A stretch of 64,000 nucleotides of DNA from a candidate division FCPU426 bacterium (GCA_030591525.1 JAUVAV010000011.1:1-64000); one strand, 5' to 3'. Counted from the stretch's first letter, positions 11,055 through 29,556 are shown. Notes: generated by a model from the letters alone, not told the origin. Numbers and translations: made by a program.

Positions 11055-11084
11055 TTGACAAAAATAAGCCTTCCATAATAAAAT
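11055..11084 (+). promoter_or_regulatory. Promoter of the first TonB receptor and possibly the Ton operon
   Basis: TTGACA at 11055-11060, 18-bp spacer, TAAAAT at 11079-11084. The sequence before and through the -35 box (A-run, TATTGACAAA) matches the dtxR promoter at 5124. Confidence 0.7.
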
Positions 11085-11097
11085 AAGGCATGCCTAA
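11084..11097. promoter_or_regulatory. DtxR-family operator candidate (TAAGGCATGCCTAA)
   Basis: A near-perfect inverted repeat centred on CATG, overlapping the end of the -10 box and the predicted start site. It shares the TTAGGC half-site with 5154-5168. The position would give metal-dependent repression of the receptor. Confidence 0.6.
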
Positions 11098-11183
11098 TAA
11101 AGGCGGCTTTTTTTTGTTTAATAAGTAAGGCGCAACAAAAAATACAAGGAGCGCCAAAAATAAAAAAAGAAAAGGAGAAAAAA

Positions 11184-13373
11184 ATGCAAGAGAAAAAAGT
11201 TAAAGCAGTAAAATTATTCAGTGCAGCATTATTGTCAATGGCGGTTTTATATCAAGGAACCGTGGCGGCCCGGGTGCAGGGAATACAGGAATATAGAATG
11301 GAGCAGGTGGTGGTGACTGGGACGAAATCGAAACGGGTGCTTTCTGACGTTCCGGTGCGCACAGAAGTTATCACGGCCGAGGATCTGGAATTAAAAGGCG
11401 CGGTTAATTTATACGAAGCCCTGGACGGCGTACCGGGTATCAGGGTGGAAGAGCAATGTTCTTACTGCAATTTTTCCATGGTGCGCATGCAGGGCTTGTC
11501 CGGGGATAATGTCCAGATCCTGATTGACGGTCAGCCGATTTATACCGGCCTGGCGGCGGTCTATGGTTTGCAGCAGATACCGGCTTCCAGTATCGAGCGT
11601 ATCGAGGTGGTCAAGGGCGCCGGCTCTGCCCTTTACGGCAGCAAGGCGGTCTCCGGGGTGATAAATGTAATCACTAAAAAGCCGGGTAAAAAGCCTTCCC
11701 TGGAGGTTGCCACCAGTTTGGGGACGCATAATACTAATAATTACTCCATGAATGCTTCGGCCCGGTTTAATGAAAAGGTGGATATCCTGATTACCGGGCA
11801 AAAAAGCAGCGGCGATATCATTGATGAAAATCAGGATATGGCATCCGACCGCGTATGGAGCAACAATATGTCCAATACGTTTAAAGTAAATATTCATGAT
11901 ATTTTTGGCCGGGATGTTATTCAGGTTAACGGCCGGTTTATTGAAGAGGCCAGAAAAGGCGGTGAACTGCCGGATGCCTATCTAAATCCTTTTAACGAGG
12001 GAAGCGAACATATCAATACTATCCGGCAGGAAGCTTCGCTGGGTTATAGCCGGGATTTTGACGCCGGCCAGGCATGCGATTTTAATTTTACCTATACCCG
12101 GCATAATCGTGATGCCACCAATGACACCTTTCTCGGTGACTTCCTTGACATTAACGGGAATTATCCCACTAGCGACCTGCTTCTGCCCTATCTGGCCGGC
12201 GAGACGCTTTATTTTGCGGATACCAATTTTACCCAGCCCTTTACGGCCGGCGGAGAGCATCGCCTTCTGGGCGGGGTGTCATTTAGCCATAATTACCTTA
12301 AAGAGAGCGGCATGTATGTGATTGTGGATGATACGGATCCGAATTATGGGTCGCCCTATAAGTCCCACAGCTTTAAAGAGGCTGATGATTGGGGCCTTTA
12401 CATCCAGGATGAGTGGGCCCTAATGGAAAATTTGGAATTGGTGATCGGCGGACGCTATGACAGGCATAAGTCCAAAAGTATATTCAGCGGAGGCGAGGAA
12501 CTGGGGCTTTTGCCGAGGGAACTGGTTTTTGAGGCGGATTCCTTTATGCCGCGCAGCGGCCTGATGGTCAAGCCGCTCCCGGAAATGACGGTCCGGGCGG
12601 CCATTGGCCAGGGATTCAGGGTGCCGTTTGGATTTGCCGAAGACCTGCACCTTTGCAGCGGATCACCCCGGGTTTTTAAAAGCGAGAACTTAAAGGCGGA
12701 AAAATCCATCAGCTATAACGCAAGTATTGATTATGGGCGGGCCTGGTATAACCTCAGCCTGAATATTTTTAGAACCGATCTTACTGATAAAATAGATTTA
12801 GCAGACGCGGAAGACGGCAGCCCGGCCGCAAGCCTGGGCTATGATTATGTATGGGAGAATCTGGGCAAGGCCTATACCCAGGGGCTGGAACTGGGCGCGG
12901 AGCTGAGTCCGCTTAATAACTTGATTTTGAAAGCGGATTTTACCTGCACTGACGCTCAGTACCAGGAGGCGCGCGGAGATTGGGAGAATCATCCGGTCCA
13001 TGGCGATAAATATTTCGCAGATAGCAAATATATTTCGCGGGTTCCCCAATTTTCAGCCGGTGCCGATGTTGTCGCACAGCCGGGGAGTTGGAAATTTTTC
13101 GCCGGCCTTGACCTGATTGGGCCGCAATACATTGATTACAATGCCAATGATGACGTGGAGGATCCGGCCAGCGAAATAGTAAAGACCGATTCCTATATGA
13201 TTATGAACTTGAGCGCAGCCTATACTTTCCAGGAGATAGGTTTAACCCTGTTGGCCGGGGCGAAGAATCTATGGGATGAAAGACAGACTGATAAGCGGCC
13301 GGATGACGCCGCCTTTATTTACAAACCCCTGACCGGCCGCATTTTATATGCCGGAGCTAAAATAGCGTTTTAA
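11184..13373 (+). CDS. TonB-dependent outer-membrane receptor (metal/tetrapyrrole type, receptor 1)
   Basis: 729 residues with a signal peptide (about 1-29), a TonB box near MEQVVVTGT, a plug domain (about 45-165: VRTEVITAEDLE, IDGQPIYTG, IERIEVVKGAGSALYGS, GVINVITKKPG) and a 22-strand barrel ending in phenylalanine, as the BAM machinery prefers. An unusual CSYC pair sits in the plug (positions 11457-11468). The FRAP/NPDL-type boxes of haem receptors are only partly kept (FRVP, SENL). The start ATG follows AAAAGGAG. Its promoter has a DtxR-like box, and a Ton motor operon follows, so it is probably the substrate-specific entry port for an iron or other metal complex. The ligand is not proven. 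Confidence 0.9.
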   Translation: MQEKKVKAVKLFSAALLSMAVLYQGTVAARVQGIQEYRMEQVVVTGTKSKRVLSDVPVRTEVITAEDLELKGAVNLYEALDGVPGIRVEEQCSYCNFSMVRMQGLSGDNVQILIDGQPIYTGLAAVYGLQQIPASSIERIEVVKGAGSALYGSKAVSGVINVITKKPGKKPSLEVATSLGTHNTNNYSMNASARFNEKVDILITGQKSSGDIIDENQDMASDRVWSNNMSNTFKVNIHDIFGRDVIQVNGRFIEEARKGGELPDAYLNPFNEGSEHINTIRQEASLGYSRDFDAGQACDFNFTYTRHNRDATNDTFLGDFLDINGNYPTSDLLLPYLAGETLYFADTNFTQPFTAGGEHRLLGGVSFSHNYLKESGMYVIVDDTDPNYGSPYKSHSFKEADDWGLYIQDEWALMENLELVIGGRYDRHKSKSIFSGGEELGLLPRELVFEADSFMPRSGLMVKPLPEMTVRAAIGQGFRVPFGFAEDLHLCSGSPRVFKSENLKAEKSISYNASIDYGRAWYNLSLNIFRTDLTDKIDLADAEDGSPAASLGYDYVWENLGKAYTQGLELGAELSPLNNLILKADFTCTDAQYQEARGDWENHPVHGDKYFADSKYISRVPQFSAGADVVAQPGSWKFFAGLDLIGPQYIDYNANDDVEDPASEIVKTDSYMIMNLSAAYTFQEIGLTLLAGAKNLWDERQTDKRPDDAAFIYKPLTGRILYAGAKIAF

Positions 13374-13378
13374 GCGAT

Positions 13379-13444
13379 GGGGGGACGTTCTCAATTTAAC
13401 AACTTAATTGTCTCTTTAAGTTGTTAAATTGAGAACGTCCCCCC
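13379..13444. repeat. Perfect 29-bp inverted repeat with 8-base loop (REP-like)
   Basis: Arms 13379-13407 and 13416-13444 are exact reverse complements, starting GGGGGGACGTTC and ending GAACGTCCCCCC. No T-tract follows. It separates the receptor from the Ton operon by forming a very stable hairpin 5 bp after the stop codon, so it could attenuate read-through; a mobile REP/MITE origin is also likely. Confidence 0.85.
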
Positions 13445-13461
13445 GCTATAAGAGGAAAGAG

Positions 13462-14334
13462 ATGATGATCCGAAAAAGAGAAAATAAAAGGGATGCCGGC
13501 ATAAGAGTCTTGGCGCTGGCTTTGTCCGCCATGGCATGCTGCCTAGGTGTTTGCGCTGCCCAGGAGGGTTTGCCTGATCAGCATAAAGAACTGTACCAAG
13601 CGCACAAAATAACGTATCGCGAATCGCATAAGGCGGTCGCGCTTACCCGGACCTTGGAAAGCCTGGCGGAAAAACTGGCGCGCCTTCAGCAGCAGGTGGA
13701 AATGGAGAAACAATCCTGGCAGGAGGAAAAGGCCAACCTGGAACAAACATTCAAACTTCTGCGTAAAGAGAAAACCCTGCTGGAAAAAGAAATCCGCACT
13801 ACGAAAAAAAATAAAAATACTCAAAGGGCTGAGCGCGCGCAGTGGCTGGAGGAAGAACGGCGGTATACAAAGGTTTTGGGAAATTGCGGTCCCACGCTGA
13901 GCCGGGCGGAAGCGAATTTATTAAAATGGCAAAAGCGTTTGCCGCCGGCTTTGCTCTTGCTTCTGAAAAAGCAGTTCAACCGACTGAACCGCAGCCATGA
14001 GCGGTCCGTGTCGCAAAGGCTGCAATTGGTTCTGAATTTATACGGAAAAATCGAAGGATTTCAGCATAGGGCACATTTGGTCAGGGAGGTTTTAACCATA
14101 AAGGGAGGGCGGAAAAAAGAATTTGATGTGCTTTACCTGGGCTTGGCGCAGGGATTTGCCGTCAGCCGGGACAACCAACAAGCCGGTCTGGGACGTCCGG
14201 ACATAGGAACCTGGAACTGGGACTGGCATCCGGAATTGATAGGTAAGATACGGCTAAGTATGGACTATTACCGGCATAATAAAACCGCGGATTTTGTGCT
14301 CTTGCCCCTGCGCATTAACAAGGAATTGCCATGA
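13462..14334 (+). CDS. DUF3450-like periplasmic coiled-coil protein of the Ton operon
   Basis: 290 residues. A hydrophobic stretch (about 13-34, ending in VCAAQEG) is a signal peptide. A long charged coiled coil follows (about 60-150, many Glu, Lys, Gln and Leu). The last hundred residues, with GTWNWDWHPEL and LLPLRIN near the end, fit the DUF3450 pattern known from TonB2/TtpC operons of Vibrio and relatives. An in-frame ATG at 13429 lies inside the inverted repeat; ATG 13462 or 13465 after AGAGGAAAG is better. The stop overlaps the next start (ATGA), so translation is coupled to the TtpC-like gene. Probable role: periplasmic part of the energy-transfer complex. Confidence 0.7.
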   Translation: MMIRKRENKRDAGIRVLALALSAMACCLGVCAAQEGLPDQHKELYQAHKITYRESHKAVALTRTLESLAEKLARLQQQVEMEKQSWQEEKANLEQTFKLLRKEKTLLEKEIRTTKKNKNTQRAERAQWLEEERRYTKVLGNCGPTLSRAEANLLKWQKRLPPALLLLLKKQFNRLNRSHERSVSQRLQLVLNLYGKIEGFQHRAHLVREVLTIKGGRKKEFDVLYLGLAQGFAVSRDNQQAGLGRPDIGTWNWDWHPELIGKIRLSMDYYRHNKTADFVLLPLRINKELP

Positions 14335-15719
14335 AGCGGCTATTAACGCTGATTTCAATGCTGGCCATTATTCAAACCATTGGGACGTCTGCCGGGGCGG
14401 GCAATAAATTGGATCAGGCTGTTCTGGCCCTGGAAGCGGACATTAAAAAAGCGAGCTCCCAATTAACGGAGCTCCGCAAGCGGCATTCCGCGGAGCGGAT
14501 CATGCTGAGCCGCAGGATCGCCGAATTGGAAAGCGGAATTATTCCCCTCAGGGAAAAGCGGCAGGAGCTGAAAGATATAATCTGGATGAAGGAGACCGGT
14601 TATCAGCAGTTGCAGGCTCGGGCAGGTTCTTTAAAAGAAGAGGTGAGTTTCTGCGCCTCCCTGCTCTCGGAGTATTACCGGGAGATGACGGTCCGCATGA
14701 CCTTGGCAGAGGAAAACCATTTAAAAGAAACCAGGCCGGAGATTGACCGGGTTTTGAGGGCAGAATCTTCGGAAACCGTGCTGGAGGGCATTCAGCCCAT
14801 GCTGGATATGATCAGCCATCAAAACCAAGTTAACCTGGGCGGGACAGTCTTTAAAGGACAGGCTTTGGATAAAAACGGTTTGCTCTATTCCGGAACTTTT
14901 GTCCGGGCCGGACCAATTGATTTTTTTGTGGATGATAAAGGAAAGACAGCGGGTCTGACCGGCTTAAACCCGGGAAGTGCCATTCCGCAAATTATATTAG
15001 GATTAAACGCGGAGAATCTGCAGGACCTGGCTCTTGGCCGCGAAGCCGAGGTATTGCTGGATTTTACCTTGGGCGAAGCTATAAAGGTGAAACAGCATAA
15101 AAAATCCTGGTTCCAGCATATCCGGGCCGGCGGGATTGTCATGATTCCCATATTGGGACTGGGCCTGCTCTGTCTGGGAGTGGCGATTCGGAAATTCATT
15201 GAACTGCGGAAATTAAAAACCCATGTAGAACCGGTTATCGCCAATGTTCTGGCTTTTATTCATCGCGGCGATATTCAGCAGGCCGGGAACGAAGCCCGGA
15301 AAGCGGGAGCGCCGATTGCGCCGGTTTTGGCCGAAGGCGTACACCATTATAACGCGCCTCAGGAGCATATTGAGGAAATAATGCATGAACAGATTTTAAG
15401 CCAAATTCCGGCCCTGGAAAAAAACCTTCCGGTTTTAGCCGTATCAGCCGCGGTCTTGCCGCTTTTAGGTCTGTTAGGCACGGTTACCGGTATGGTCCAT
15501 ACTTTTGACCTGATGGCGATTTTCGGAACCGGCAAAGTAAACCTGCTTTCCGGGGGTATCAGCGAGGCCTTGATCACAACGGAATTCGGTCTGATAACCG
15601 CCATTCCCGCACTCCTGGTTCACGCTTATTTATCAAAGCGGGTTAAAACCGTGGTCCATACCATGGAACAAACCGCGATTGCTTTTGTGAATGGATTGCA
15701 TATCAGGAAGAAAAAATGA
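14331..15719 (+). CDS. TtpC-like protein: periplasmic coiled coil + MotA/TolQ/ExbB proton channel domain
   Basis: 462 residues. A signal peptide (about 1-23) is followed by a DUF3450-like coiled-coil periplasmic region to about residue 255, then a TolQ/ExbB domain: first membrane helix GIVMIPILGLGLLCLGVAI, cytoplasmic loop, and the paired helices with VLPLLGLLGTVTGMVHTF and ALITTEFGLITAIPALLVH. This is the architecture of TtpC, the additional ExbB-like component of TonB2 systems. It overlaps both neighbours by four bases. It probably assembles with the ExbB, ExbD and TonB encoded next to couple proton flow to outer-membrane transport. Assignment is by domain order and context. Confidence 0.82.
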   Translation: MKRLLTLISMLAIIQTIGTSAGAGNKLDQAVLALEADIKKASSQLTELRKRHSAERIMLSRRIAELESGIIPLREKRQELKDIIWMKETGYQQLQARAGSLKEEVSFCASLLSEYYREMTVRMTLAEENHLKETRPEIDRVLRAESSETVLEGIQPMLDMISHQNQVNLGGTVFKGQALDKNGLLYSGTFVRAGPIDFFVDDKGKTAGLTGLNPGSAIPQIILGLNAENLQDLALGREAEVLLDFTLGEAIKVKQHKKSWFQHIRAGGIVMIPILGLGLLCLGVAIRKFIELRKLKTHVEPVIANVLAFIHRGDIQQAGNEARKAGAPIAPVLAEGVHHYNAPQEHIEEIMHEQILSQIPALEKNLPVLAVSAAVLPLLGLLGTVTGMVHTFDLMAIFGTGKVNLLSGGISEALITTEFGLITAIPALLVHAYLSKRVKTVVHTMEQTAIAFVNGLHIRKKK

Positions 15720-16342
15720 ATAACCTGATAGAGAGTTTCCAGTACTGGATCAAAGGTGGCTGGCTGCTTATTCCCCTGGCCGGAGTCTGCATATTTATCT
15801 GGTACTACTTTATAAAAATGAATGGGCGTTTAAAAAAACTTCTGTCCGCGCCCGAGGGTATAGAAGACGAACTGCAGGAGGAATTGGCCAGGAGCCATAG
15901 CTGGAGCCGGGTAAAACCTCCGGCTTTGGGCCAGGCTTGCCGAATAAACTACATGATCGCTTATGCCATTGAAAGGCTCAGACAAGGCCGGGATTTAATC
16001 CATATCTTCAGCGAGATGAGACAAAAAGAGTTTGCGCCTTTTGAGCGTGATCTGGCCGTGCTGAGCGCGCTGGTAACTTCCGCCCCTTTGCTGGGATTGC
16101 TGGGCACAGTGTTCGGCATGGTTAATACCTTTTCAGCCATTGCGGAACGGTCCAGCCAAACCACGGAATTAATGGCCTCGGGGATCAGCCAGGCCCTGAT
16201 TACCACCCAATTTGGCCTGATTATCGCGATTCCCGGCATTTTCGGCATTTCCTTGCTGCGGAAAAAACTGCAACAGGTAGAGGTGCGTTTTTCAGCATTG
16301 CAAATTCACTTTTCTTTAGGCCTGCACCGGAGGGGGCAATGA
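15716..16342 (+). CDS. exbB: ExbB/TolQ proton channel protein
   Basis: 208 residues, short for ExbB, lacking any periplasmic N-terminal extension. A first membrane helix (about 15-33), a cytoplasmic loop, and two conserved helices with TSAPLLGLLGTVFGMVNTF and LITTQFGLIIAIPGIFGI, the hallmark of TolQ/ExbB/MotA channels. Overlaps by ATGA with both the TtpC-like gene and exbD. It would form the pentameric inner-membrane channel around the ExbD dimer. Confidence 0.9.
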   Translation: MNNLIESFQYWIKGGWLLIPLAGVCIFIWYYFIKMNGRLKKLLSAPEGIEDELQEELARSHSWSRVKPPALGQACRINYMIAYAIERLRQGRDLIHIFSEMRQKEFAPFERDLAVLSALVTSAPLLGLLGTVFGMVNTFSAIAERSSQTTELMASGISQALITTQFGLIIAIPGIFGISLLRKKLQQVEVRFSALQIHFSLGLHRRGQ

Positions 16343-16740
16343 ACCGTCATCGATATTTACAATCTTCGGACTCGGTGGAGATCAATATATCGCCATTGAT
16401 TGATATGATGTTTTTACTGCTGATATTTTTTATCGTGACCACTGCTTTTGTGGAAGAGATTGGCATACAAATCCAGAAACCCAAGGCTGCCAGCGCGCAA
16501 AATCTGGAAAAGCAAAGCATCATGCTGGGAGTTTCGGAAAACGGCGGCGTAATTTATGGCGGTAATGAAATCGGGCTGAGCGGTGTTCGCGCTTTAGTAT
16601 CCCGCCTGCTGAAAGACCGGGAGCGGCCCGTGATTATTATTGCCGACACCCAGAGCCGGAGCGGAATAGTAGTGGATGTGATAGATGAATGCAAACTGGC
16701 CGGAGCCAAACAGGTAAGTATTGCCACGGAGGCGGAATGA
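16339..16740 (+). CDS. exbD: ExbD/TolR biopolymer transport protein
   Basis: 133 residues, normal for the family. A short cytoplasmic N-terminus with EINISPLIDMMFLLLIFFIV: the aspartate in the single membrane helix is the conserved proton-carrying residue. The C-terminal periplasmic domain begins around residue 45. Translation is coupled on both sides by ATGA overlaps. Functions with the ExbB and TonB encoded next to it. Confidence 0.93.
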   Translation: MNRHRYLQSSDSVEINISPLIDMMFLLLIFFIVTTAFVEEIGIQIQKPKAASAQNLEKQSIMLGVSENGGVIYGGNEIGLSGVRALVSRLLKDRERPVIIIADTQSRSGIVVDVIDECKLAGAKQVSIATEAE

Positions 16741-17387
16741 ACCCCCCCAGGTTGTATTGTCCGGATATGGGACCGAAGTGGAGCTATAAGGTGGCAATTG
16801 CCGGTATTCTGATTACTCTGGGCATTTTTTTATCATTGCCCCTGCTCGATATGCTGGTTCGTCAGAAAAAACGGCTTAAAATTCGCCAGGTCTCGGTCAC
16901 GGAGATACGCAAGACATTGCCGCGTATTCCGCCGCCCATAAGAAAAAGGACAAAAGCCTGGAAGCCTAAGTTGGCCGAGCCCCGGCAGAGTCTCGCCATG
17001 ACGCGAATTAATGCCGCTTTGAGCCTGGAACCGGGCTTCGGGGATTTCAGCCTGAATTTTGGGCCATCCCTGATGGCAGGGGCCGGGGATCTGGTTTTTG
17101 ATATTTCCGAGGTGGACCAACCACCCCGGGGAGTATTTACAATGTTGCCGATATATCCCCTGGCCGCGAAGTTAAAAAACTTGAAGGGCCGGGTAGTGCT
17201 GGCATTTGTTGTCAAGGGTGACGGCACGGTTGACCGGATAGCAGTCCAATCCGCATCGCCCGCCGGTGTGTTTGAGCAGGCAGCGATTAATGCGGTAAAA
17301 AAGTGGCGGTTTAAACCGGGGACCAGGAGGGGCAAGCCCGTGGCCACGCGGGTTATTCAGCCCCTGGAGTTTAGTTTGGAGAGATAG
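16737..17387 (+). CDS. tonB: TonB energy transducer
   Basis: 216 residues. A short N-terminus, a membrane helix (VAIAGILITLGIFLSLPLLD), a modest basic Pro/Lys segment (PRIPPPIRKRTKAWKPK) much shorter than the classical Pro-rich spacer, and a C-terminal TonB domain from about residue 130 with YPLAAKLKNLKGRVVLAFVV, AAINAVKKWRFKPG and a final strand. The longer reading frame from 16689 lies within exbD; ATG 16737 overlaps the exbD stop and is chosen. The short spacer is a feature of TonB2-like proteins, which may need the TtpC/DUF3450 partners to reach the outer membrane. Confidence 0.88.
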   Translation: MNPPRLYCPDMGPKWSYKVAIAGILITLGIFLSLPLLDMLVRQKKRLKIRQVSVTEIRKTLPRIPPPIRKRTKAWKPKLAEPRQSLAMTRINAALSLEPGFGDFSLNFGPSLMAGAGDLVFDISEVDQPPRGVFTMLPIYPLAAKLKNLKGRVVLAFVVKGDGTVDRIAVQSASPAGVFEQAAINAVKKWRFKPGTRRGKPVATRVIQPLEFSLER

Positions 17388-18730: not shown

Positions 18731-19414
18731 ATGTGGCTGTTTTTAATACTTCTGTTCATTCTGGGCTGGCTGCACAGCATGGTAAATCTTTCGCTGCTGA
18801 AAAAGCGCAGATATATCCTTATTTTCGCCCTGGGACTGTCGGCAATCAGCTATGGGCTGTTCCCCTTGGCGATTAAAATAAATGTGCAGACAATAAATCA
18901 AGCCATGCGTGACGCGAATATATTGAGTTTAGCCTGTACCTATCAAATTATCGAGGCTTTGGCGATTATGCTGCTGGCCCTGGTTTTAATTAAAAGTCAC
19001 TATGGCGGGAAAGCAGCCGTTATTCCGGAATCGTCGGCTTTATTTCCATCCGGGGTTTTTCTGGGCGGCGTATTTATTTTCCAGGTGTATTTTTTTAATG
19101 TTATCCATGATTTTCCGTTTCCCATAGCGGCTTTGATATTTTCACTGTTAATCCTGGCGATTGTTGGGGCATCGTCCTGGGTGATCCGGAACTTGATTTC
19201 AAGTTGGGCATGGCGGGTTGAAATTAAAATTCTGCTCTCGTTTTTCCAGATGGTATTGGCCATGTTTATTCCGCTGGTTGTGGCTGGCATGCGTACTAAT
19301 GCGCAAGGATATAAAATGAATGCCGTGGCGACCATAGTTACTTTAACTTGCATGATGATTCCGGTGATATTGGGGTTTAGCTTGAAAAGGTATTACTGTC
19401 AGGAGAATATATAA
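18731..19414 (+). CDS. Seven-helix membrane protein, probable DUF2162 putative transporter
   Basis: 227 residues, almost entirely hydrophobic with six or seven membrane helices and no soluble domain. I do not recognise it from motifs alone. The order here (membrane protein, ExbB-like, DUF2149, CobN-like) is that of a conserved cassette in methanogens and in the hmu loci of Bacteroidota, where the first member is annotated DUF2162; length and hydropathy fit. The next gene starts in the stop codon (TAATG), so the two are coupled. Likely role: membrane partner of the chelatase; a transport function is only inferred. Confidence 0.55.
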   Translation: MWLFLILLFILGWLHSMVNLSLLKKRRYILIFALGLSAISYGLFPLAIKINVQTINQAMRDANILSLACTYQIIEALAIMLLALVLIKSHYGGKAAVIPESSALFPSGVFLGGVFIFQVYFFNVIHDFPFPIAALIFSLLILAIVGASSWVIRNLISSWAWRVEIKILLSFFQMVLAMFIPLVVAGMRTNAQGYKMNAVATIVTLTCMMIPVILGFSLKRYYCQENI

Positions 19415-23300: not shown

Positions 23301-25128
23301 AAATAAAGACCTGGCCGGCGAAATCGCCAGGACCGGAAATAAAGACGCCCGGGCATTGGCGGCAGTCTTACGAAGCGGGAAAGCGCTGGGAGCGGTTAAG
23401 GAGTCTGCCCGTCTGGCAGATAAGAAAATTGCAGAATGGGAAGCCCGGGAGGCGGATTATGTTGCGGCTGTGCGGACATACCGCGATACGCTTTTTTCAA
23501 TCAAAGATTATCATGCTGCTTTGGAAAAATCGACGCAAGCAGAGATGGCGGCCATCACGCGGGCCTTGTCCGGCGGATATTTATCCCCATCCTCAGGCGG
23601 AGATCCGATCGGCAATCCCCGGTCAGTTCCGACCGGACGGAATCTTTTTGCCATTGACGCGGAAAAAACGCCGACCAAAGAAGCCTGGAAGGTTGGAGTA
23701 AAACTGGCGGATGCCTTAATCGCCGCCAGGCTCAGCCGGACTGGCAAGTATCCGCAAAAAGCGGCATTTACTTTATGGGGAGGCGAATTTATCCGCGCGA
23801 AAGGGATTAACCTGGCCCAGATATTTTACCTGCTGGGCGTGGAACCTGTGAGGAATTCCCGGGGATCTGTCCATGATGTCAGGCTGATACCCATGGAAAA
23901 ATTGAAGCGGCCAAGGATAGATGTAGTTGTGCAGACTTCGGGTCAGTTCCGGGATATAGCGGCCTCGCGGGTTTATTTGATAAATAAAGCCGTGGAACTG
24001 GCCGGCCGGGCTGATGATGGGGACCAATATGAAAACCATGTAAAAGCCGGAACCATCAAAGCCGAGGCAATTATGAAAGCCAAAGGTCTTTCGCCTGAGC
24101 AGGCCAGAAAATTCGCCGCAGCCCGGGTGTTCGGCGGAGTCAATGGAAATTACGGAACAGCCATCATGGGCAAGGTGGAATCAGGCGATAAATGGGAAGA
24201 CGAAAAAGAAATCACCGATCAATATTTAAAAAACATGGGAGCGGTTTATACCAAAGAAAATTGGGGGTTTTATCAGGCCGGAATTTTCGAAGGCGCTTTG
24301 CAAAACACGGATACAGTGGTGCATCCTCGTTCTTCCAACACTTATGGTCCATTATCCCTGGATCATTACTATGAATTTATGGGAGGTCTCAACGCGGTAG
24401 TGCGCCAGGTTACGGGCAACGACCCCGAGGCATTCTTTAATGACCTGCGCAACCGCTATAACCCACGGGTTCAGGGCGTAAAAGAAGCCATCTGGGTGGA
24501 AGCCAGAACCACGATATTTAATCCCAAGTATATCAAGGATCTCCAGGCCGGCGGGGCCTCGTCGGCCGAGGTGTTCGCGGAAACGGTCCGCAATACTTAT
24601 GGATGGAATGTGATGAAACCAAACGCGATTGACAAGGAAATATGGGAGGGGATTGAGTCAGTCTATATTCAGGATAAATATAAACTGGGCATGGAAAAGT
24701 ACTTTCGGGATAAGAATCCTTACGCTTTGCAGGAGATAACCGCAGTCATGCTGGAGACTATTCGCAAGGGCTACTGGCAGCCCGATGCGGCGGTCATTAA
24801 GCGTATCGCTGAATTACATGCCAGGCTGGTGATAGATCATAAAGCCGGATGCAGCGGGTTTGTATGCGATAACGCGAAATTGCAAGCCATGATTCAAAAT
24901 GCGCTGAAGCCGGAAATGAAAGCGGATTATAAACGGCAGATTGATTCAGCCAGGGTGGGAGAAACAGGAGAGAAGAAAAAGGGAATGGAATTGAAAAAAG
25001 AAAAGATGAGCCTGGAGAAGGTCAAGGAGCTGGTTAAGGAAAACATAACTACGGTTGTGGCAGTGTTTATAATTCTATTGCTGTTTTCCGCGGCCGTGAT
25101 TGTCGGCATGGCCAGACATAGAAAATAG
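20374..25128 (+). CDS. Membrane-anchored CobN/BchH-family metal chelatase, HmuS-like
   Basis: 1584 residues. The N-terminus has a membrane segment (KKPYIIAGLLAIGLAGAVYV) and the C-terminus another (VVAVFIILLLFSAAVIVGM), so the large catalytic part should face the periplasm. CobN-family signatures are clear: HFGTHGSLEFTPWK, LIGDLPHPYIYVINNIGEA, AKRRSYAVIASHLTPPF, RIDVVVQTSGQFRDIAASR and RVFGGVNGNYGTAI. A low-complexity insert near residues 793-820 holds MMASMMAMAMD followed by a Lys-rich stretch. No cobS/cobT or chlI/chlD partner genes and no cobalamin synthesis genes are present, so a role in cobalt insertion for B12 synthesis is unlikely. The neighbours match the hmu haem-use loci of Bacteroidota, whose HmuS relatives act on haem; metal removal from a periplasmic tetrapyrrole is the best hypothesis. 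AAAGGA precedes the start. Confidence 0.85.
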   Translation: MKTIMVNIMGLLKKPYIIAGLLAIGLAGAVYVKFISPTNLAFINFTDSQYAQILQVKGNPFIRVKRISFKPEKTPGLKKYTAIYIFGMGLNLNEKQMKSIRAAMNKGSKVYVYAATSSGSDLTNLAGDNLKYVEACFSNGGRRNMHALLNYSRRIFDGKTLFGRPLAEPQIIPHDVFFHLGEEEFFADYKKYQEFYETKGYYKPEGAKICILTTNLGPRNRNNRAAVDALIRDLEARGMNVYPAAGFMQRLDFLKAVNPDLAVLMPHGRLAMGRAAEAVAYLGEKNIPLLCPIHIFGPYDEWLKDQQGMAGGMLSQSIVMPELDGGIDPYVIGAQFKNKDGLYVFQPIPERIKRFGRRVENWIRLQRLPNSGKKVAIVYYKGPGLNAMSAGGLEVGPSMLNVLRHLKQRGFNTGVLPENNQVLMERIQKEGPVLGAYAKGSFQKYLDNGNPKLIPVPTYSAWCQQQLKPEMVKDIEANYGPAPGAYMQVTKGEERYIAVARIRFGNVVILPQPLPGYGDNESKLIHGIKKAPPHSYVAAYLWAKNGFKADAIVHFGTHGSLEFTPWKQAALSQYDWPDALIGDLPHPYIYVINNIGEAMIAKRRSYAVIASHLTPPFTEADLYGKLSELHNALHSYFSTESKALKQEYRETIKTLVYKMELHKDLELEEKEKGALPEAAIHKIHNHIHALEQEKITRGLYTLGRSYRQTDVYETVRLMAIDAIAYSRAGLDLLQGKIKAEDMENQHKFDKMYRQKAYAVIDNILLHNYSPAGYLDKQDLEQLAAWEKLHARPSDDEMMASMMAMAMDSQGKKKKTPEKAKKTDLGRLKVLVLEIAPDPKKQEFILSLKNGKNFTRVSALLDPESMKKAVKVVKCVPAMREKLELFKDPNMLELVGLMQNSKSRETVFNLLEDKNMRAQIRDEQKKLKEQAVLKALEPDYTRDIFLAIKPEKYRPTIAGWHKNRLLVFKNHIGFYLENKDLAGEIARTGNKDARALAAVLRSGKALGAVKESARLADKKIAEWEAREADYVAAVRTYRDTLFSIKDYHAALEKSTQAEMAAITRALSGGYLSPSSGGDPIGNPRSVPTGRNLFAIDAEKTPTKEAWKVGVKLADALIAARLSRTGKYPQKAAFTLWGGEFIRAKGINLAQIFYLLGVEPVRNSRGSVHDVRLIPMEKLKRPRIDVVVQTSGQFRDIAASRVYLINKAVELAGRADDGDQYENHVKAGTIKAEAIMKAKGLSPEQARKFAAARVFGGVNGNYGTAIMGKVESGDKWEDEKEITDQYLKNMGAVYTKENWGFYQAGIFEGALQNTDTVVHPRSSNTYGPLSLDHYYEFMGGLNAVVRQVTGNDPEAFFNDLRNRYNPRVQGVKEAIWVEARTTIFNPKYIKDLQAGGASSAEVFAETVRNTYGWNVMKPNAIDKEIWEGIESVYIQDKYKLGMEKYFRDKNPYALQEITAVMLETIRKGYWQPDAAVIKRIAELHARLVIDHKAGCSGFVCDNAKLQAMIQNALKPEMKADYKRQIDSARVGETGEKKKGMELKKEKMSLEKVKELVKENITTVVAVFIILLLFSAAVIVGMARHRK

Positions 25129-25140: not shown

Positions 25141-25290
25141 ATGGAAACCAAAAAGGAAATCAGCCGGGATATGCTGGATGAAATTGTTCAATCAATCCAG
25201 TGGATAAAATACGGGGAGGTGAGGATTATCGTTCATGATTCGAAGATTGTACAAATAGAAAAAATCGAAAAAAAACGCTTTCAAAACTAA
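25141..25290 (+). CDS. YezD-family (DUF2292) small protein
   Basis: A 49-residue gene. It has the YezD pattern of a short helix (SRDMLDEIVQSIQWI), then KYGEVRIIVHDSKIVQIEKIEKKRF; the YG-x-V-x-I-x-x-HD-x-K-x-V-Q-I-E-K core is typical. GAGG lies two bases before ATG. It sits 12 bp after the chelatase gene and probably belongs to the same transcript. The biochemical role of YezD proteins is unknown; they often occur near sulfur or metal uptake genes. Region 25291-25406 after it shows only the receptor ribosome site. Confidence 0.8.
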   Translation: METKKEISRDMLDEIVQSIQWIKYGEVRIIVHDSKIVQIEKIEKKRFQN

Positions 25291-25406
25291 ACCAACCTGA
25301 AAACCGACCACGTCTGTGGAGATTAACAAGCGGCCCATCCGGAAATGCCCACTGGAAAACCAGAGAATTCCGAAAAGAATATATCTAAAAAACGAGGAGG
25401 AGTGAA

Positions 25407-27422
25407 ATGCGAAAGTACATTACAGTATTAGCCATGCTGGGTGTGATTGCATGGGGAATGCCGGCAGTGGCGCAGCAGGAGATGGAGACAACGCCGGTGG
25501 CGGAACAAACAGCGCCGGTGGCGGAACAAACAGCGCCGGTGGCGGAACAAACAGCGCCGATGGCGGAACAAGCAGCGCCGGCGGCGGAACAAGCAGCGCC
25601 GGCGGCGGATTCCGCCGCTTCGGCAGAGAAAGAAATACCGAGTTTTCATTTAGATAAGATGGTGATCTCAGCCACTAAAACTGAGCACAAACTAGGCGAT
25701 GTGCCAGTGGCAACCGAGATCATAACGCAGGAAGATATTCAGGCCAGAGGCGCAAAAACGGTTCAGGATGCGCTGCGGGGTCTGGCAGGGATAAAGATCA
25801 ACAAATCGTGCGGCAGTTGGGGAGATAAAGGCAAAATAGAAATCCACGGCATGGACGCAAGTCAGACGCTTATTCTCGTGGACGGACAGAGAGCCGTTGG
25901 CGGGCATGCCAACGCTGTTGACCTTAACCAAATACCCGTGGAAATGATAGAAAGAATAGAGATTGTCAAAGGGCCCGGTTCCGCGCTTTATGGCAGCGAT
26001 GCCATGGCCGGGGTGGTAAATATCATTACCAAATCAGCTCCGGATAAACCACGAATTTCAGTAGGAACATCCCTGGGCAGCCGGCAAACCCAAATCTATG
26101 AAGCCGGCGGCGGGATAAAGGCCGGAGATTTCGGCATCGGTGATTTCGGTGTGGACGTGAATTATACGCAACGACAATCAGACGGTATTAACGCAGAAAC
26201 AGACAGGTACATCGAGGACATGGTACAGGGGACTGTGCAATATTCATTTATGCCCCAAGCGAAATTGGCTGTCAAACCGTTTTACTCAAAAAACAAGATG
26301 GATTATGAAGGCCGCAATCAGGAGCGCCTGGGTCTGAATGCACTGTTTGATTGGTCTCCGGATAAATATTCCAAATTGAATTTCCGGGGCGGCTGGTTTA
26401 ATTATCAGCATTATACTGAAGATAAAAGTACCGATTACACCGGCAATGATTATGATGCTGAAATCAATTACAACCATACTCTGTTTGAACACTACACGCT
26501 TACCGGCGGATACTCGTATTACAGCAAAAAACTAGACGATCCCGGCAAAGCTTATTCAGCGGATCAGATCCTGCATAGCGGACTGTTGCAGGCGGAATTG
26601 AATTTTGCTCCAGTGACAGCTGTTTTGGGAGCCAGGCTTGACAATCATGATCTTTGGGGAGCAGAAATTAATCCCAAAGGCAGCTTAATGTACAAGGTCA
26701 TAGATGGTCAGGAAGCTTTGAGATTGAGAGCGTCGGTGGGAACCGCGTTTCGCGCTCCCAGTCTGGTCAAATTGTACGCTGATGGCTGGCGGATGGGACC
26801 TTGGGTAGTCAGGGCGAATCCTGATCTTAAGCCTGAGAAATCCATCGGTTATCAGGCAGGCGCGGAATACAATATGTCCACTTTGCTGCTGGCCAAAGTG
26901 GTGTACTTTTGCAATGAAATCAAGGATTTGATTAATTACCAAACGGATGTTGAAGTAATTCCGCAGCCATTCGGGCCTCCGATAATGAGAATGTATATGG
27001 ACTGGGACAATGTCAGTGAAGCTATGACGAGAGGTATCGAATACAGCCTGGCCGGTCACCCGATGGATAAGCTGTACCTCAAGTTAGGATACACTTTTAT
27101 GTGGACCGAGGATAAAGAAACCGGAAAAGAATTGACCTACAAGCCTCAACATAAGCTGGATTTTAGCGCCAGTTACCGCATTCCCTTTATTGATGTGCTG
27201 CTGGTGGCTGAAGCGGAATATGTCGGCAAACGTTTTGCGGACGAGGCCAATGAAGACCCGCTGGGTGCGTACACTCTGTTGAATTTAGCCTTGTCCCGTA
27301 GTTTGCTTGACAATGCTGATGTGTTTGTCCGGGCGGATAATCTTACCGGCGAGAAAGATATCGCGGACGAATATGATATTGACGGCACCGTAGTGCTCGC
27401 TGGTTTGAAAGTGAAGTTCTAA
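25407..27422 (+). CDS. TonB-dependent outer-membrane receptor, haem/cobalamin-receptor-like (receptor 2)
   Basis: 671 residues. Signal peptide (1-22), a tandem heptapeptide linker (about 30-68), the TonB box region HLDKMVISATKTE, a plug (GDVPVATEIITQEDIQARG, DASQTLILVDGQRA, IERIEIVKGPGSALYGSDAM) and a barrel ending in LKVKF. The barrel keeps the FRAP...NPDL pair (GTAFRAPSLVKLY, VRANPDLKPEKS) characteristic of haem and haemoglobin receptors such as HmuR, though similar boxes exist in cobalamin receptors. Strong AGGAGG ribosome site. Directly downstream of the chelatase cassette, so it is probably the haem or tetrapyrrole entry port. No clear promoter of its own was found. Confidence 0.92.
   Translation: MRKYITVLAMLGVIAWGMPAVAQQEMETTPVAEQTAPVAEQTAPVAEQTAPMAEQAAPAAEQAAPAADSAASAEKEIPSFHLDKMVISATKTEHKLGDVPVATEIITQEDIQARGAKTVQDALRGLAGIKINKSCGSWGDKGKIEIHGMDASQTLILVDGQRAVGGHANAVDLNQIPVEMIERIEIVKGPGSALYGSDAMAGVVNIITKSAPDKPRISVGTSLGSRQTQIYEAGGGIKAGDFGIGDFGVDVNYTQRQSDGINAETDRYIEDMVQGTVQYSFMPQAKLAVKPFYSKNKMDYEGRNQERLGLNALFDWSPDKYSKLNFRGGWFNYQHYTEDKSTDYTGNDYDAEINYNHTLFEHYTLTGGYSYYSKKLDDPGKAYSADQILHSGLLQAELNFAPVTAVLGARLDNHDLWGAEINPKGSLMYKVIDGQEALRLRASVGTAFRAPSLVKLYADGWRMGPWVVRANPDLKPEKSIGYQAGAEYNMSTLLLAKVVYFCNEIKDLINYQTDVEVIPQPFGPPIMRMYMDWDNVSEAMTRGIEYSLAGHPMDKLYLKLGYTFMWTEDKETGKELTYKPQHKLDFSASYRIPFIDVLLVAEAEYVGKRFADEANEDPLGAYTLLNLALSRSLLDNADVFVRADNLTGEKDIADEYDIDGTVVLAGLKVKF
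25491..25609. repeat. 21-bp tandem repeat (about 5.5 copies) coding for PVAEQTA-type heptapeptides
   Basis: Unit GCGCCGGTGGCGGAACAAAC plus one base; the first three copies are almost identical, the last ones change to PMAEQAA and PAAEQAA. Because the unit is a multiple of three, copy-number change would keep the reading frame. It codes for the flexible stretch between signal peptide and TonB box of receptor 2. Confidence 0.92.
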
Positions 27423-27433: not shown

Positions 27434-27461
27434 GTAGGGGCGATTCGCGAATCGCCCCTAC
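27434..27461. repeat. 28-bp perfect palindrome, core GATTCGCGAATC
   Basis: Located 11 bp after the stop of receptor 2 and 5 bp before the ribosome site GGAGGTGA of the next small gene. As RNA it would form a stem just upstream of that site. Confidence 0.9.
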
Positions 27462-27975: not shown

Positions 27976-28066
27976 CAGGTAGCATTGCTTATATTCATGT
28001 TGATTTCCGGTTGTTTTTTAAATATAGTCTCTTTAAAATGGATGAAGTAATAAAAAGCGGTGCATA

Positions 28067-28714
28067 GTGAAGATGAAATTTAAACATTTTATTACAAAAT
28101 TGCTTGATCTTGGTGCCGGGTTTTATGATCCTCTTATAGGATTGACTCTGGCGGAGAAGGAATTCAGAGAAAAGCTTCTGGAATTGGCGCATTTAAAAGG
28201 CAATGAAAAAGTTCTTGATATAGCGTGTGGAACCGGCACTTTTGCTCTGATGATCGCTGAAGCCCTGGACAGAGGTTATGTCTTTGCCATAGATATATCC
28301 ACTAGAATGGTGGAAACAGCTAAAAAGAAAGCAGAACAAAATAACTTTAAAATAGACTATAAGGTGGGAAGTTCCCTGGAGTTGCCATATAACAGCAATG
28401 AGTTCGATCTAGTATTTACCAGCTTGATGTTTCATCATTTGGATTATGGAGAAAAAGCCCGGACTTTGTGCGAAATTTATCGGGTGCTTAAACCAGACGG
28501 GATGTATCTTTCGGTAGAATTTGGAGAATTTCCAACAGATGTTTTTCATCGCGCGATTCTCGGATTAACGCGATCATCCGGTACTCTGCATGGAATATAT
28601 CCATGCCGCTTAATGGAAGCTGCAGGATTTTATATTGATGGCGAGATGGAAGGGCCGGCGCTTGCCGGACACCATAAGACAAAATACCGGGTACTAAGGA
28701 AAAGACTTATTTAA
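28067..28714 (+). CDS. Class I SAM-dependent methyltransferase (UbiE-like)
   Basis: 215 residues. Motif I is VLDIACGTGTFALMIAEAL with the Gly-rich SAM loop; motif II acid in FAIDISTRMV; motif IV region FDLVFTSLMFHHL; post-IV EIYRVLKPDGMYL. This is the Methyltransf_11/25 fold of ubiquinone/menaquinone-type and many small-molecule methylases. A short N-terminal helix precedes the fold. Start GTG 28067 follows a weak AGCGGTG; ATG 28073 is also possible. It lies between the receptor 2 block and zupT, so it may act on the imported compound, but nothing in the sequence shows the substrate. Confidence 0.85.
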   Translation: MKMKFKHFITKLLDLGAGFYDPLIGLTLAEKEFREKLLELAHLKGNEKVLDIACGTGTFALMIAEALDRGYVFAIDISTRMVETAKKKAEQNNFKIDYKVGSSLELPYNSNEFDLVFTSLMFHHLDYGEKARTLCEIYRVLKPDGMYLSVEFGEFPTDVFHRAILGLTRSSGTLHGIYPCRLMEAAGFYIDGEMEGPALAGHHKTKYRVLRKRLI

Positions 28715-28797
28715 GGAGATACTCATTTATGACGGTTTTTTACAAGCGGTCAAGGTAAATTGAAGCCTCCAGAAGCATTACCGGGAAAAGGTGTAAT

Positions 28798-29556
28798 ATG
28801 GAAAAAATAGATTTATTGTTTGCATTTGCCCTAACCACTGCGGCCGGGCTCTGTACCGGCATAGGCAGCGCCATTGCCTTTTTCATCCGGAAGCCAAAAT
28901 ACTCCTATTTAGCGGTTTTATTGGGTTTTTCCGCGGGGGTAATGATATATATTTCTTTTGCAGAACTGCTCAGGGAAGCGATTGATAAAATCGGTTTTTC
29001 CACGGCTAATGTCTACTTTTTCATCGGATTTATCTTCATAGCGATAATCGATATATCAATTCCGCACAGCTATATTGCTGAGAAAGCAGCGAAAGACAAG
29101 AATAATCTAAAGCGAGCCGGGCTTTTTTTAGCCCTGGGAATCGGGATTCATAATTTGCCGGAAGGGTTAGCTACTTTTGTCAGCGCATCTACAGGAGATA
29201 TGAGATTAAGTCTGTCGATTGCCGCTGCTATTGCCATCCATAATATTCCCGAGGGTATCTCTGTCTCAGCGCCAATTTTTTATGCTACCAGAAGCCGTAA
29301 AAAGGCGTTTTTATACTCATTCGCATCCGGCCTGGCAGAGCCGGTAGGCGCATTAATTGGATATGTTTTGCTTCTGCCTTTTATATCCCGGGAACTTATT
29401 ATGGGTCTTTTGGCTTTTGTGGCAGGTATTATGGTCTATATCAGCCTTGATGAGCTGCTGCCCCTTGCTCACAAATATGGGAAGGAGCATCATGTATTGA
29501 TGGGACTGGCATTAGGAATGGCGGTTATGGCTTTTAGTCTCTGGATGCTTCGCTGA
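28798..29556 (+). CDS. zupT: ZIP-family divalent metal transporter (ZupT-like)
   Basis: 252 residues, eight predicted membrane helices. The two metal-binding helices carry HNLPEGLATFVSA and HNIPEGISVSAP, the paired HNxPEG motifs of ZupT; GLAEPVGALIGY and LDELLPLAHKYG follow as in the bacterial ZupT group. ZupT moves Zn(II) and also Fe(II), Mn(II) and Co(II) into the cytoplasm. AAAAGGTG lies before the start. It closes the metal-uptake block and may complement FeoB. Confidence 0.92.
   Translation: MEKIDLLFAFALTTAAGLCTGIGSAIAFFIRKPKYSYLAVLLGFSAGVMIYISFAELLREAIDKIGFSTANVYFFIGFIFIAIIDISIPHSYIAEKAAKDKNNLKRAGLFLALGIGIHNLPEGLATFVSASTGDMRLSLSIAAAIAIHNIPEGISVSAPIFYATRSRKKAFLYSFASGLAEPVGALIGYVLLLPFISRELIMGLLAFVAGIMVYISLDELLPLAHKYGKEHHVLMGLALGMAVMAFSLWMLR

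What the first reader, a model, noticed from the sequence alone, without database searches (positions are those of the whole stretch)
11055..29556. Hmu-like metallo-tetrapyrrole acquisition island with its own Ton motor in a probable Omnitrophota genome
Seen: receptor 1, DUF3450-like, TtpC-like, ExbB, ExbD, TonB, TPR, DUF2162-like, ExbB-like, DUF2149, membrane-anchored CobN-like enzyme, YezD-like, receptor 2, methyltransferase and ZIP, nearly all on one strand, many coupled by ATGA overlaps. Known: the DUF2162/ExbB/DUF2149/CobN set occurs in methanogens and in hmu haem-use loci of Bacteroidota, and TtpC/DUF3450/TPR belong to TonB2 systems of Gammaproteobacteria. Inference: here the two are fused into one machine in which a receptor imports haem or a related ring, the chelatase removes metal in the periplasm, and FeoB/ZIP import it. 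The combination of both modules in one run looks new.
Basis: partly seen in the sequence, partly recalled or inferred. Interest (0 to 1): 0.82.

Follow-up and report, generated by a model that had tools for sequence, protein, structure and literature searches.

The report
Haem-iron stripping island with own motors
This stretch holds a bacterial kit that probably pulls haem through the outer membrane and strips out its iron in the space beneath; the enzyme type is known, but the layout suggests that its companion proton-driven motor works on the stripping enzyme itself rather than on uptake.

Summary
One strand carries receptor 1, a complete TonB2-type motor in the Vibrio order, HmuT, HmuU, HmuV (DUF2149), HmuS, DUF2292 and receptor 2; methyltransferase and ZIP lie beyond a 644-bp gap. 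The "CobN-like" protein is a genuine HmuS (haem de-chelatase, described 2025): all eight published residues tested are kept, and the tree puts it in a non-Bacteroidota branch of HmuS. The genome shows no second CobN, CobT, CbiC or ferrochelatase. A same-family genome repeats the island directly after dtxR-feoA-feoB, with one type of palindrome before four genes, which supports iron control. Novelty shrinks: CobN beside exbB-exbD-tonB was published for Geobacter lovleyi in 2012, and a sister genome has receptor 1 and the TonB2 motor without hmu genes. The strongest new inference is that HmuU-HmuV is not the Ton motor, as published, but energises HmuS/HmuT: here a Ton motor stands beside it, and 17 of 17 archaeal genomes searched have HmuU-HmuV and CobN-family proteins but no detectable receptor plug, TonB or ExbD. 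This is unproven; purified HmuS works briefly without them.

The parts
5184..5648 (+). DtxR-type iron-dependent repressor gene, first of a dtxR-feoB pair
   Evidence: Pfam Fe_dep_repr_C 4.7e-23; promoter region shares an identical 18-mer, TAAAAAAATATTGACAAA, with the island promoter
5675..7807 (+). FeoB ferrous-iron importer; directly upstream of the island in the sister genome G016
   Evidence: Pfam FeoB_N 7.7e-64; G016 order
11055..11097 (+). promoter-like TTGACA-18-TAAAAT with overlapping palindrome TAAGGCATGCCTAA (candidate DtxR-type operator)
   Evidence: 11 of 12 consensus matches, the only one that high of 35 found (28 expected); palindrome at 11084-11097; match count in the window not above chance, so suggestive only
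11184..13373 (+). TonB-dependent receptor 1
   Evidence: Pfam 2e-49; best NCBIfam TonB-hemin 165 bits, below its cut-off of 317
13379..13444 (.). 67-nt inverted repeat between receptor 1 and DUF3450
   Evidence: 29-pair hairpin, -51.4 kcal/mol, z -13.7; not a T-tailed terminator
13462..14334 (+). DUF3450 protein, TtpB-like, start of the TonB2-type motor genes
   Evidence: Pfam 7e-23; same place as ttpB2 in Vibrio
14331..15719 (+). TtpC-like protein (long N-terminal part plus TolQ/ExbB domain)
   Evidence: Pfam MotA_ExbB 1e-30; 25% identity over 97% of its length to an Alteromonas plasmid protein in a TonB2-type operon
15716..16342 (+). ExbB of the Ton motor
   Evidence: Pfam 3.6e-24
16339..16740 (+). 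ExbD of the Ton motor
   Evidence: Pfam 3e-28
16737..17387 (+). TonB
   Evidence: Pfam TonB_C 5.7e-20; start codon read from the sequence printed
17398..18720 (+). TPR protein, TtpD-like
   Evidence: TPR models; last gene of the TonB2 operon as in Vibrio
18731..19414 (+). HmuT, predicted polytopic membrane protein, divergent DUF2162 relative without the PCPxC motif
   Evidence: 7 hydrophobic segments; hhalign 95.3% with DUF2162
19414..20007 (+). HmuU, ExbB-like proton-channel protein; Thr128 (19795-19797) and Thr158 (19885-19887) align with Thr of the window's ExbB
   Evidence: Pfam MotA_ExbB 5e-8; 39% to HmuU; both Thr invariant in 78 of 78 rows; alignment with ExbB
20011..20340 (+). HmuV (DUF2149), one N-terminal helix starting NLFD, Asp27 at 20089-20091
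   Evidence: Pfam 1e-33; 56% to HmuV; Asp in 9 of 10, Glu in 1 of 10
20374..25128 (+). HmuS haem de-chelatase, one membrane helix at each end; Met88-Gly89 (20635-20640), His267-Gly-Arg (21172-21180), HFGTHG 554-559 (22033-22050), LSLDHYYEFMGG 1327-1338 (24352-24387)
   Evidence: PDB 9d26 HmuS 1176 bits vs ChlH 388, CobN 365; hydropathy; motifs; tree
25141..25290 (+). DUF2292 (YezD-like) small protein, role unknown
   Evidence: Pfam 5.6e-15
25407..27422 (+). TonB-dependent receptor 2
   Evidence: Pfam 6e-41; best NCBIfam TonB-B12 224 bits, below its cut-off of 600
27434..27461 (.). perfect palindrome after receptor 2, possible end of the transcription unit (no T tract)

Best explanation
This is an iron-starvation haem-iron acquisition island. 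Receptors 1 and/or 2 bring haem (or a similar iron tetrapyrrole) through the outer membrane, powered by the TonB2-type motor encoded beside them. HmuS, anchored in the inner membrane by a helix at each end with its body in the periplasm, takes the haem and removes Fe(II), leaving the porphyrin; FeoB imports the Fe(II). HmuU and HmuV form a second, separate proton-driven channel (an ExbB-like ring with an ExbD-like rod carrying a proton-relay Asp) that works at the inner membrane with HmuT and HmuS. It probably supplies the conformational work or product release that AAA+ partners supply to CobN and ChlH, rather than driving TonB. Shown here: gene content, order, HmuS identity, conserved residues, conserved linkage, shared palindromes in the sister genome, and the occurrence of HmuU-HmuV and CobN-family proteins in archaeal genomes without a detectable Ton system. 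Inferred: substrate, direction of the reaction in this organism, topology, and what HmuU-HmuV drive.
For: HmuS identity: best solved match 9d26; all 8 tested residues kept (Met79, Gly80, His254-Gly-Arg, His538, His1209, Glu1212 in B. theta numbering); 26-row HmuS clade with SH-aLRT 100, apart from CobN/ChlH. Iron: in G016 the order is dtxR-feoA, feoB, small Cys-rich gene, receptor 1, motor, DUF3793, flavodoxin, HmuTUVS, receptor 2, with GTTAGA-N4-TCTAAC (0 or 1 mismatch) before four genes. Across that 3.6-Mb genome the extended pattern has only 2 exact matches, both here. A haem-binding ChaN gene sits between HmuV and HmuS in a Hydrogenedentota locus. No CobT, CbiC or ferrochelatase was found in G000. 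Motor: HmuU and HmuV both present in 76 of 80 loci, the other 4 having HmuV within 200 bp of a contig end; CobN on the same strand in 39 of 45 well-flanked loci. Of 17 archaeal genomes with HmuU-HmuV, 17 have CobN-family proteins and 0 have a TonB receptor plug, TonB_C or ExbD, while the bacterial genomes in the same searches ring. Purified HmuS without its helices stops after 1-2 turnovers (section read), which leaves room for a missing driver.
Against: Purified truncated HmuS does remove iron with NADH and no HmuTUV, and B. theta lysate needs no ATP, so a motor is not needed for at least one turnover. Own Ton-motor genes were found near HmuUV in only 2 of the 80 scanned loci (L020, L061), so in Bacteroidota HmuUV could still serve TonB. 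Neither receptor reaches a haem-receptor cut-off, and receptor 2 scores best against B12 receptor models. 6 of 45 well-flanked HmuU-HmuV loci, 5 of them archaeal, have no CobN on the same strand in the stretch. The haem-site residues are not universal inside the HmuS clade: L061 (Omnitrophota) has His-Ala at Met79-Gly80, Aureibacter and L091 have Arg at Met79, and the two sampled rows of a 10-row Prevotellaceae-type subgroup differ at Met79 and His254. The tree is a quick search with composition and long-branch warnings. The archaeal genomes are mostly draft assemblies with no completeness given. The Asp conservation in the 80 loci is circular, because the scan pattern demanded NL[FI]D. In the window itself the operator palindrome count is not above chance, and the G016 operator pattern has no match in G000. 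The Omnitrophota genome G059, which also has HmuS, does have a ferrochelatase.
Confidence: 0.6

Rival explanations
1. Published view: HmuU and HmuV are simply an ExbB/ExbD pair that energises TonB and the haem receptor, so the island has two redundant Ton motors.
For: HmuU has a MotA/ExbB match; two papers state this role for HmuU/HmuV in B. theta (passages); only 2 of 80 scanned loci show their own ExbD or TonB gene nearby.
Against: A full ExbB-ExbD-TonB set stands next to HmuUV here, in G016, in L061 and in T. lovleyi. HmuU-HmuV occur in archaeal genomes with no plug, TonB_C or ExbD match (0 of 17). HmuV matches DUF2149, not the ExbD family.
Confidence: 0.2
2. HmuTUV is an inner-membrane transporter for whole haem, porphyrin or the freed metal, driven by the HmuUV channel; HmuS feeds it or acts as a haem chaperone.
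For: Proposed for P. gingivalis (passages). HmuT is polytopic and homologous to 'predicted transporter' DUF2162. In Runella the gene just before HmuU is annotated urease accessory protein, which I recall as a possible nickel-permease family.
Against: HmuT and DUF2162 models gave no PDB match at E up to 0.001. A polytopic T-like protein was found before HmuU in 53 loci (window included), fewer than the 77 with HmuU.
Confidence: 0.3
3. The CobN-family protein serves cobalt, nickel or cobalamin, not haem.
For: Receptor 2 is closest to B12 receptor models. Relatives with the same HmuUV pair sit in hyp, NikR and cobalamin gene contexts; a methanogen CobN1 is produced at high level only under nickel limitation (passage).
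Against: Five such relatives (T. lovleyi, Azospirillum, Diaphorobacter, a comamonad, Runella) lack the HGR and LSLDHxxEFMGG motifs and lie outside the HmuS clade. The sister island follows dtxR-feoA-feoB. No CbiC or CobT in the genome.
Confidence: 0.08
4. Two neighbours, not one machine: receptor 1 with the TonB2 motor serves another ligand, and only HmuTUVS with receptor 2 deals with haem.
For: G015 carries receptor 1 (55% identical) and the whole TonB2 module with no hmu gene matched in the stretch and no DUF2149 in the genome; a hairpin separates receptor 1 from the motor.
Against: 10-bp spacing TPR-HmuT in the window; order conserved in both genomes of the 45 in the phylum set that have DUF2149, apart from the inserted DUF3793-flavodoxin pair; palindromes of one type before receptor 1 and before the DUF3793-flavodoxin-hmuTUVS run in G016.
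Confidence: 0.3

Closest known systems
Bacteroidota hmuYRSTUV operon (B. theta HmuS, PDB 9d26; P. gingivalis hmu)
   Same: HmuS residues and motifs; HmuU 39%, HmuV 56% identical to the B. finegoldii proteins; HmuT in the corresponding place before HmuU
   Different: No HmuY gene in the run; order is T-U-V-S instead of S-T-U-V; HmuT too diverged for BLAST (19 bits); own TonB2 motor and a second receptor; outside Bacteroidota, in a sister clade of HmuS
Vibrio TonB2 system (ttpB2-ttpC2-exbB2-exbD2-tonB2-ttpD2)
   Same: Same six gene types in the same order; an Alteromonas plasmid has the same order with a receptor in front
   Different: Here followed by hmuTUVS; low sequence identity where measured (25% for TtpC to Alteromonas)
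Geobacter lovleyi pSZ77 cobN-exbB-exbD-tonB cluster (PMC3403914, 2012)
   Same: Receptor, DUF2162, HmuU-like, DUF2149, CobN-family and a Ton motor in one run
   Different: CobN there lacks the HmuS motifs, sits by cobalamin genes, plain ExbB-ExbD-TonB without TtpB/C/D genes
Archaeal DUF2162 / ExbB-like / DUF2149 / CobN sets of methanogens and ANME
   Same: HmuU-HmuV with CobN-family protein, T-like gene in front in many
   Different: No detectable Ton system; none of the archaeal CobN rows has LSLDHxxEFMGG

Membership tests
HmuS haem de-chelatase | Met-79/Gly-80 and His-254-Gly-Arg haem site at head/neck | tested here: met
   Met88-Gly89 and His267-Gly-Arg aligned; features from passages of PMC12583661
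HmuS haem de-chelatase | HFG(T/A)HG with catalytic His-538 | tested here: met
   HFGTHG at residues 554-559
HmuS haem de-chelatase | LSLDHxxEFMGG with His-1209 and Glu-1212 | tested here: met
   LSLDHYYEFMGG at residue 1327
HmuS haem de-chelatase | single membrane helix at each end | tested here: met
   hydropathy peaks 17-35 and 1561-1579
HmuS haem de-chelatase | methionine-rich insertion | tested here: inconclusive
   the translation shows a Met-rich stretch MMASMMAMAM in the long insertion, but no extent or composition test was made
HmuS haem de-chelatase | phylogenetic place inside HmuS | tested here: met
   26-row clade, SH-aLRT 100; quick tree with long-branch and composition warnings
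HmuS haem de-chelatase | haem to PPIX activity | not testable with these tools
   needs protein
hmu operon as first described (hmuYRSTUV) | HmuY haemophore gene in the run | tested here: not met
   spaces between assigned genes from 11184 to 27422 are at most 116 bp, too short for HmuY; the rest of the genome was not searched for HmuY
True cobaltochelatase CobN | CobT partner and corrin-ring synthesis genes | tested here: not met
   CobT 0 of 3, CbiC 0 of 3 genomes (G000, G016, G059); CobS not searched
TonB2-type energy system | DUF3450, TtpC, ExbB, ExbD, TonB, TPR in this order | tested here: met
   order from PMC6957404 passages
ExbB-type channel (HmuU) | ExbB family match and channel Thr residues | tested here: met
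   Pfam MotA_ExbB 5e-8; Thr128/Thr158 invariant 78 of 78 and aligned with Thr of the window's ExbB; that these Thr are essential in ExbB is recalled
ExbD family (HmuV) | match to Pfam ExbD | tested here: not met
   only DUF2149 matched at E up to 10
ExbD family (HmuV) | transmembrane Asp at the start of the single helix | tested here: inconclusive
   NL(F/I)D with Asp in 9 of 10 and Glu in 1 of 10 rows, set by eye beside PLID of ExbD; no alignment tool placed them together; the role of the Asp is recalled
DUF2162 (HmuT) | Pfam match and PCPxC motif | tested here: not met
   no DUF2162 hit at E up to 10, motif absent; distant homology only

The most novel reading that the evidence does not exclude
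HmuU-HmuV is a third class of chelatase motor: a proton-motive-force machine of the ExbB/ExbD kind that drives class I (de)chelatases on the outer face of the cytoplasmic membrane, where there is no ATP for CobST- or ChlID-type AAA+ partners. It would be older than its use in haem uptake, since archaea without a detectable Ton system carry it with CobN-family proteins, and the window shows it next to a complete and separate Ton motor.
Probability: 0.4. Interest if true: 0.82.

Novelty: new variant of a known kind. Interest (0 to 1): 0.55.

Why it matters
HmuS is newly known as the anaerobic haem de-chelatase. The paper that describes it leaves open why the purified enzyme stalls after 1-2 turnovers, what HmuT does, and how archaea use CobN-like proteins, and it assigns HmuUV to the Ton system in a figure legend. 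This locus separates the Ton motor from HmuUV by plain gene content, and the archaeal survey says HmuUV can exist without any detectable Ton system. Together they turn the role of HmuUV into a question that a single-residue change can answer. The island also widens HmuS beyond Bacteroidota to a clade holding an Omnitrophota and a Hydrogenedentota row and rows labelled Planctomycetota and Myxococcota, and ties it to DtxR-type control, FeoB and a flavodoxin.

Tried and rejected
Cobalamin riboswitch or other known RNA: no Rfam match at gathering score in the window. Cobalamin biosynthesis reading: rejected by absence of CbiC and CobT and by the tree. ZIP and methyltransferase as operon members: left out because of a 644-bp gap with a hairpin and a gene relic. 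Fold of HmuT and of DUF2162: both models are confident (mean pLDDT 86) but Foldseek gave no match at E up to 0.001, and VIA-align gave mostly half-MFS-like rows with best Z 8.2 and 9.2, which the tool warns is uninformative for helical bundles. A shared DtxR box in the window: one palindrome at the island promoter, but the count in the window is at chance, so the regulatory argument rests on the sister genome; a pattern check of seven other upstream stretches found none of the window's type. HmuU against PDB sequences: no hit. ClpC identity (63-66% to two Omnitrophota genomes, 61% to a Hydrogenedentota genome) does not separate phyla, so the phylum label stays an inference. Literature on Omnitrophota with haem and TonB: one paper, on another subject by its title. 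A search for chelatase with proton motive force and ExbB listed 8 papers. In the two hmu papers of that list where I read passages I saw no proposal that HmuUV drives HmuS, though the P. gingivalis authors say HmuTUV may affect HmuS activity; most subscription papers are not held, so this is not proof that the idea is absent from print. DUF3450 as a marker is noisy: below its cut-off it also rings in 3 more genomes of the 45 and in 5 of 14 control genomes.

17 of the 32 archaeal loci were sent to the whole-genome searches. Of the 10 plasmid records with DUF2149, one was already held, 8 were fetched and one (H10) was not; L012 is unannotated and was not analysed. The tree used CobN frames of 850 residues or more plus 13 chosen rows (77 in all); partial rows can lack motifs because they are cut. 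The residue table holds a chosen part of those 77 rows.

Full report
What is there. The window carries a compact run on one strand from receptor 1 (11184) to receptor 2 (27422). From DUF3450 to DUF2292 the gaps lie between -4 and +33 bp (with TonB taken from the ATG at 16737). A 67-nt inverted repeat folding at -51 kcal/mol sits between receptor 1 and DUF3450, and a perfect palindrome follows receptor 2; neither carries a T tract. Methyltransferase and ZIP follow after a 644-bp gap that also holds a 115-bp, 97% identical copy of the 3' end of the TPR gene.

The first half is a TonB2 operon. DUF3450, TtpC-like, ExbB, ExbD, TonB and a TPR protein stand in the order ttpB2-ttpC2-exbB2-exbD2-tonB2-ttpD2 described for Vibrio vulnificus (passages of PMC6957404); an Alteromonas plasmid has the same order after a receptor. 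In the phylum set of 45 genomes, DUF3450 over its cut-off occurs in 4, all of the window's family; 3 more match below it. In G015 such a module with a receptor 55% identical to receptor 1 stands without any hmu gene matched in the fetched stretch, and G015 has no DUF2149 match. The Ton module is therefore separable from its hmu neighbour.

The second half is Hmu. The CobN-family protein is the only PF02514 match in the genome. Its best solved relative is HmuS 9d26 (1176 bits), far ahead of ChlH (388) and CobN (365). All eight HmuS residues tested are conserved: the Met/Gly and His-Gly-Arg of the haem site, the catalytic His of HFGTHG, and the His and Glu of LSLDHxxEFMGG (defined in passages of PMC12583661). 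A quick tree of 77 rows places it in a 26-row HmuS clade (SH-aLRT 100), within a 6-row non-Bacteroidota branch (99). That branch also holds the sister genome G016, an Omnitrophota, a Hydrogenedentota, a Planctomycetota (Sedimentisphaerales) and a row labelled Myxococcota. The 20 Bacteroidota rows form the sister branch (98); three true CobN and one ChlH are outside. The tree tool warned of uneven composition and of long branches meeting where three Planctomycetota rows join the HmuS clade. The hallmark residues are not universal within the clade: L061 lacks Met79-Gly80, Aureibacter and L091 have Arg at Met79, and the two sampled rows of the 10-row Prevotellaceae-type subgroup differ at Met79 and His254. 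HmuU is 39% and HmuV 56% identical to the B. finegoldii proteins. HmuT is too diverged for BLAST but is homologous to DUF2162 by profile comparison (95.3%), lacking the PCPxC motif seen in nearly all of the DUF2162 rows aligned.

Iron control and context. The window's feoB ends 3.4 kb upstream of receptor 1, and its dtxR promoter shares an identical 18-mer at the -35 region with the island promoter. In G016, same family but another genus, the whole island is repeated directly after dtxR-feoA and feoB, with a DUF3793-flavodoxin pair inserted before hmuT. GTTAGA-N4-TCTAAC, with at most one mismatch, occurs before dtxR-feoA, before a small Cys-rich gene, before receptor 1 and before the DUF3793 gene (3 matches in L006 against 0.01 expected, 1 in L005 against 0.03). 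Genome-wide the extended pattern has two exact matches, both here; of the six one-mismatch rows two are the other strand of those, one is the DUF3793 site and three lie elsewhere, against one for the reversed control. G000 has no match to this pattern. A DtxR-FeoA gene also stands upstream in the Sedimentisphaerales locus, and a haem-binding ChaN gene stands between HmuV and HmuS in the Hydrogenedentota locus. No ferrochelatase, CbiC or CobT was found in G000 or G016; G059, another HmuS-bearing Omnitrophota genome, does have a ferrochelatase. These facts favour haem iron over cobalt or nickel.

What HmuU and HmuV do. Two papers draw them as the ExbB/ExbD pair for TonB (passages); a third draws HmuTUV as an inner-membrane haem transporter and says HmuV has no known relatives (passages). 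Three lines speak against a Ton role. First, a complete Ton motor stands beside HmuUV here, in G016, in L061 and in T. lovleyi; among the 80 scanned loci, however, only L061 and L020 show ExbD or TonB genes nearby. Second, a DUF2149 scan of the genome-contig collection returned 80 loci (best of 584), of which 76 hold both HmuU and HmuV; the other four have HmuV within 200 bp of a contig end. CobN lies on the same strand in 61 of 80 stretches, or 39 of 45 with long flanks (archaea 12 of 17, bacteria 27 of 28), in very different contexts. Third, 17 of 17 archaeal genomes searched have CobN-family proteins, and 0 of 17 have a receptor plug, TonB_C or ExbD, while the bacterial genomes in the same searches rang. 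HmuU keeps two channel threonines in 78 of 78 rows. HmuV starts its helix with NL(F/I)D, with Asp in 9 of 10 rows chosen without that pattern and Glu in the tenth; in the 80 scanned loci this is circular.

Limits. Truncated, purified HmuS removes iron with NADH but only for 1-2 turnovers (section read), so HmuUV cannot be essential for the chemistry; it could serve turnover, product release or transport. The flavodoxin in G016 fits the published guess that a flavodoxin passes electrons to HmuS (section read). Receptor ligands are unproven: receptor 1 scores best with haem and receptor 2 with B12 receptor models, both below cut-off. The archaeal genomes are mostly drafts without completeness figures.

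Prior art. CobN next to exbB-exbD-tonB, with the remark that CobS/CobT are lacking, was published for Geobacter lovleyi in 2012 (passages). BtuS in Methanosarcina barkeri and CobN1 in nickel-limited methanogens are in print (passages). The EMBO J. paper says archaea lack complete hmu operons and that their use of these homologs is unclear (section read). The data here add that many archaeal loci hold HmuU-HmuV, often with a T-like gene in front.

Verdict. The claimed novelty of joining modules is modest, but the arrangement makes a sharp and testable case that the Hmu channel is a chelatase motor.

Noticed in passing
window 18591-18705 and 27805-27919: 115-bp direct repeat, 97% identical: the 3' end of the TPR (ttpD-like) gene recurs as a relic after receptor 2, flanking the whole hmuTUVS-receptor 2 segment; a trace of duplication or insertion.
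   Followed up: partly
window 3-4679: One long frame, open at the window's start, joins class II fructose-bisphosphate aldolase, enolase N and enolase C domains in a single polypeptide of over 1500 residues.
   Followed up: partly
L005 9561-14263 (G016:C11): hmuS of the sister genome is split into two overlapping frames; sequencing error or real frameshift not decided. It was not mended. The EMBO J. paper reports a false frameshift in the first B. theta assembly.
   Followed up: no
L005 15946-17076: Flavodoxin and DUF3793 genes between the TPR gene and hmuT in G016, with a DtxR-type palindrome in front: a candidate electron supply for HmuS.
   Followed up: partly
L053 3456-4439: ChaN-type haem-binding protein gene (PF04187, 2.8e-58) between HmuV and HmuS in a Hydrogenedentota metagenome.
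   Followed up: partly
L011 1746-16004: Runella plasmid: receptor, urease accessory protein, HmuU-like, DUF2149 and CobN inside a hydrogenase-maturation (hyp) cluster, suggesting a nickel version of the same module.
   Followed up: partly
A6 alignment, DUF2162 of archaea and Desulfobacterota: Nearly all DUF2162 rows carry a PCPxC motif that HmuT lacks; possible metal ligand or redox pair.
   Followed up: no
window 4753-5101: Degenerate repeats of about 50-113 bp upstream of dtxR, related in inverted sense to 10902-10957 upstream of the island.
   Followed up: no
window 32338-34162: DUF1007 gene followed by a NicO-type nickel/cobalt transporter gene, outside the island.
   Followed up: no
window 40939-45474: 1511-residue frame with no Pfam match at E up to 0.001.
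   Followed up: no
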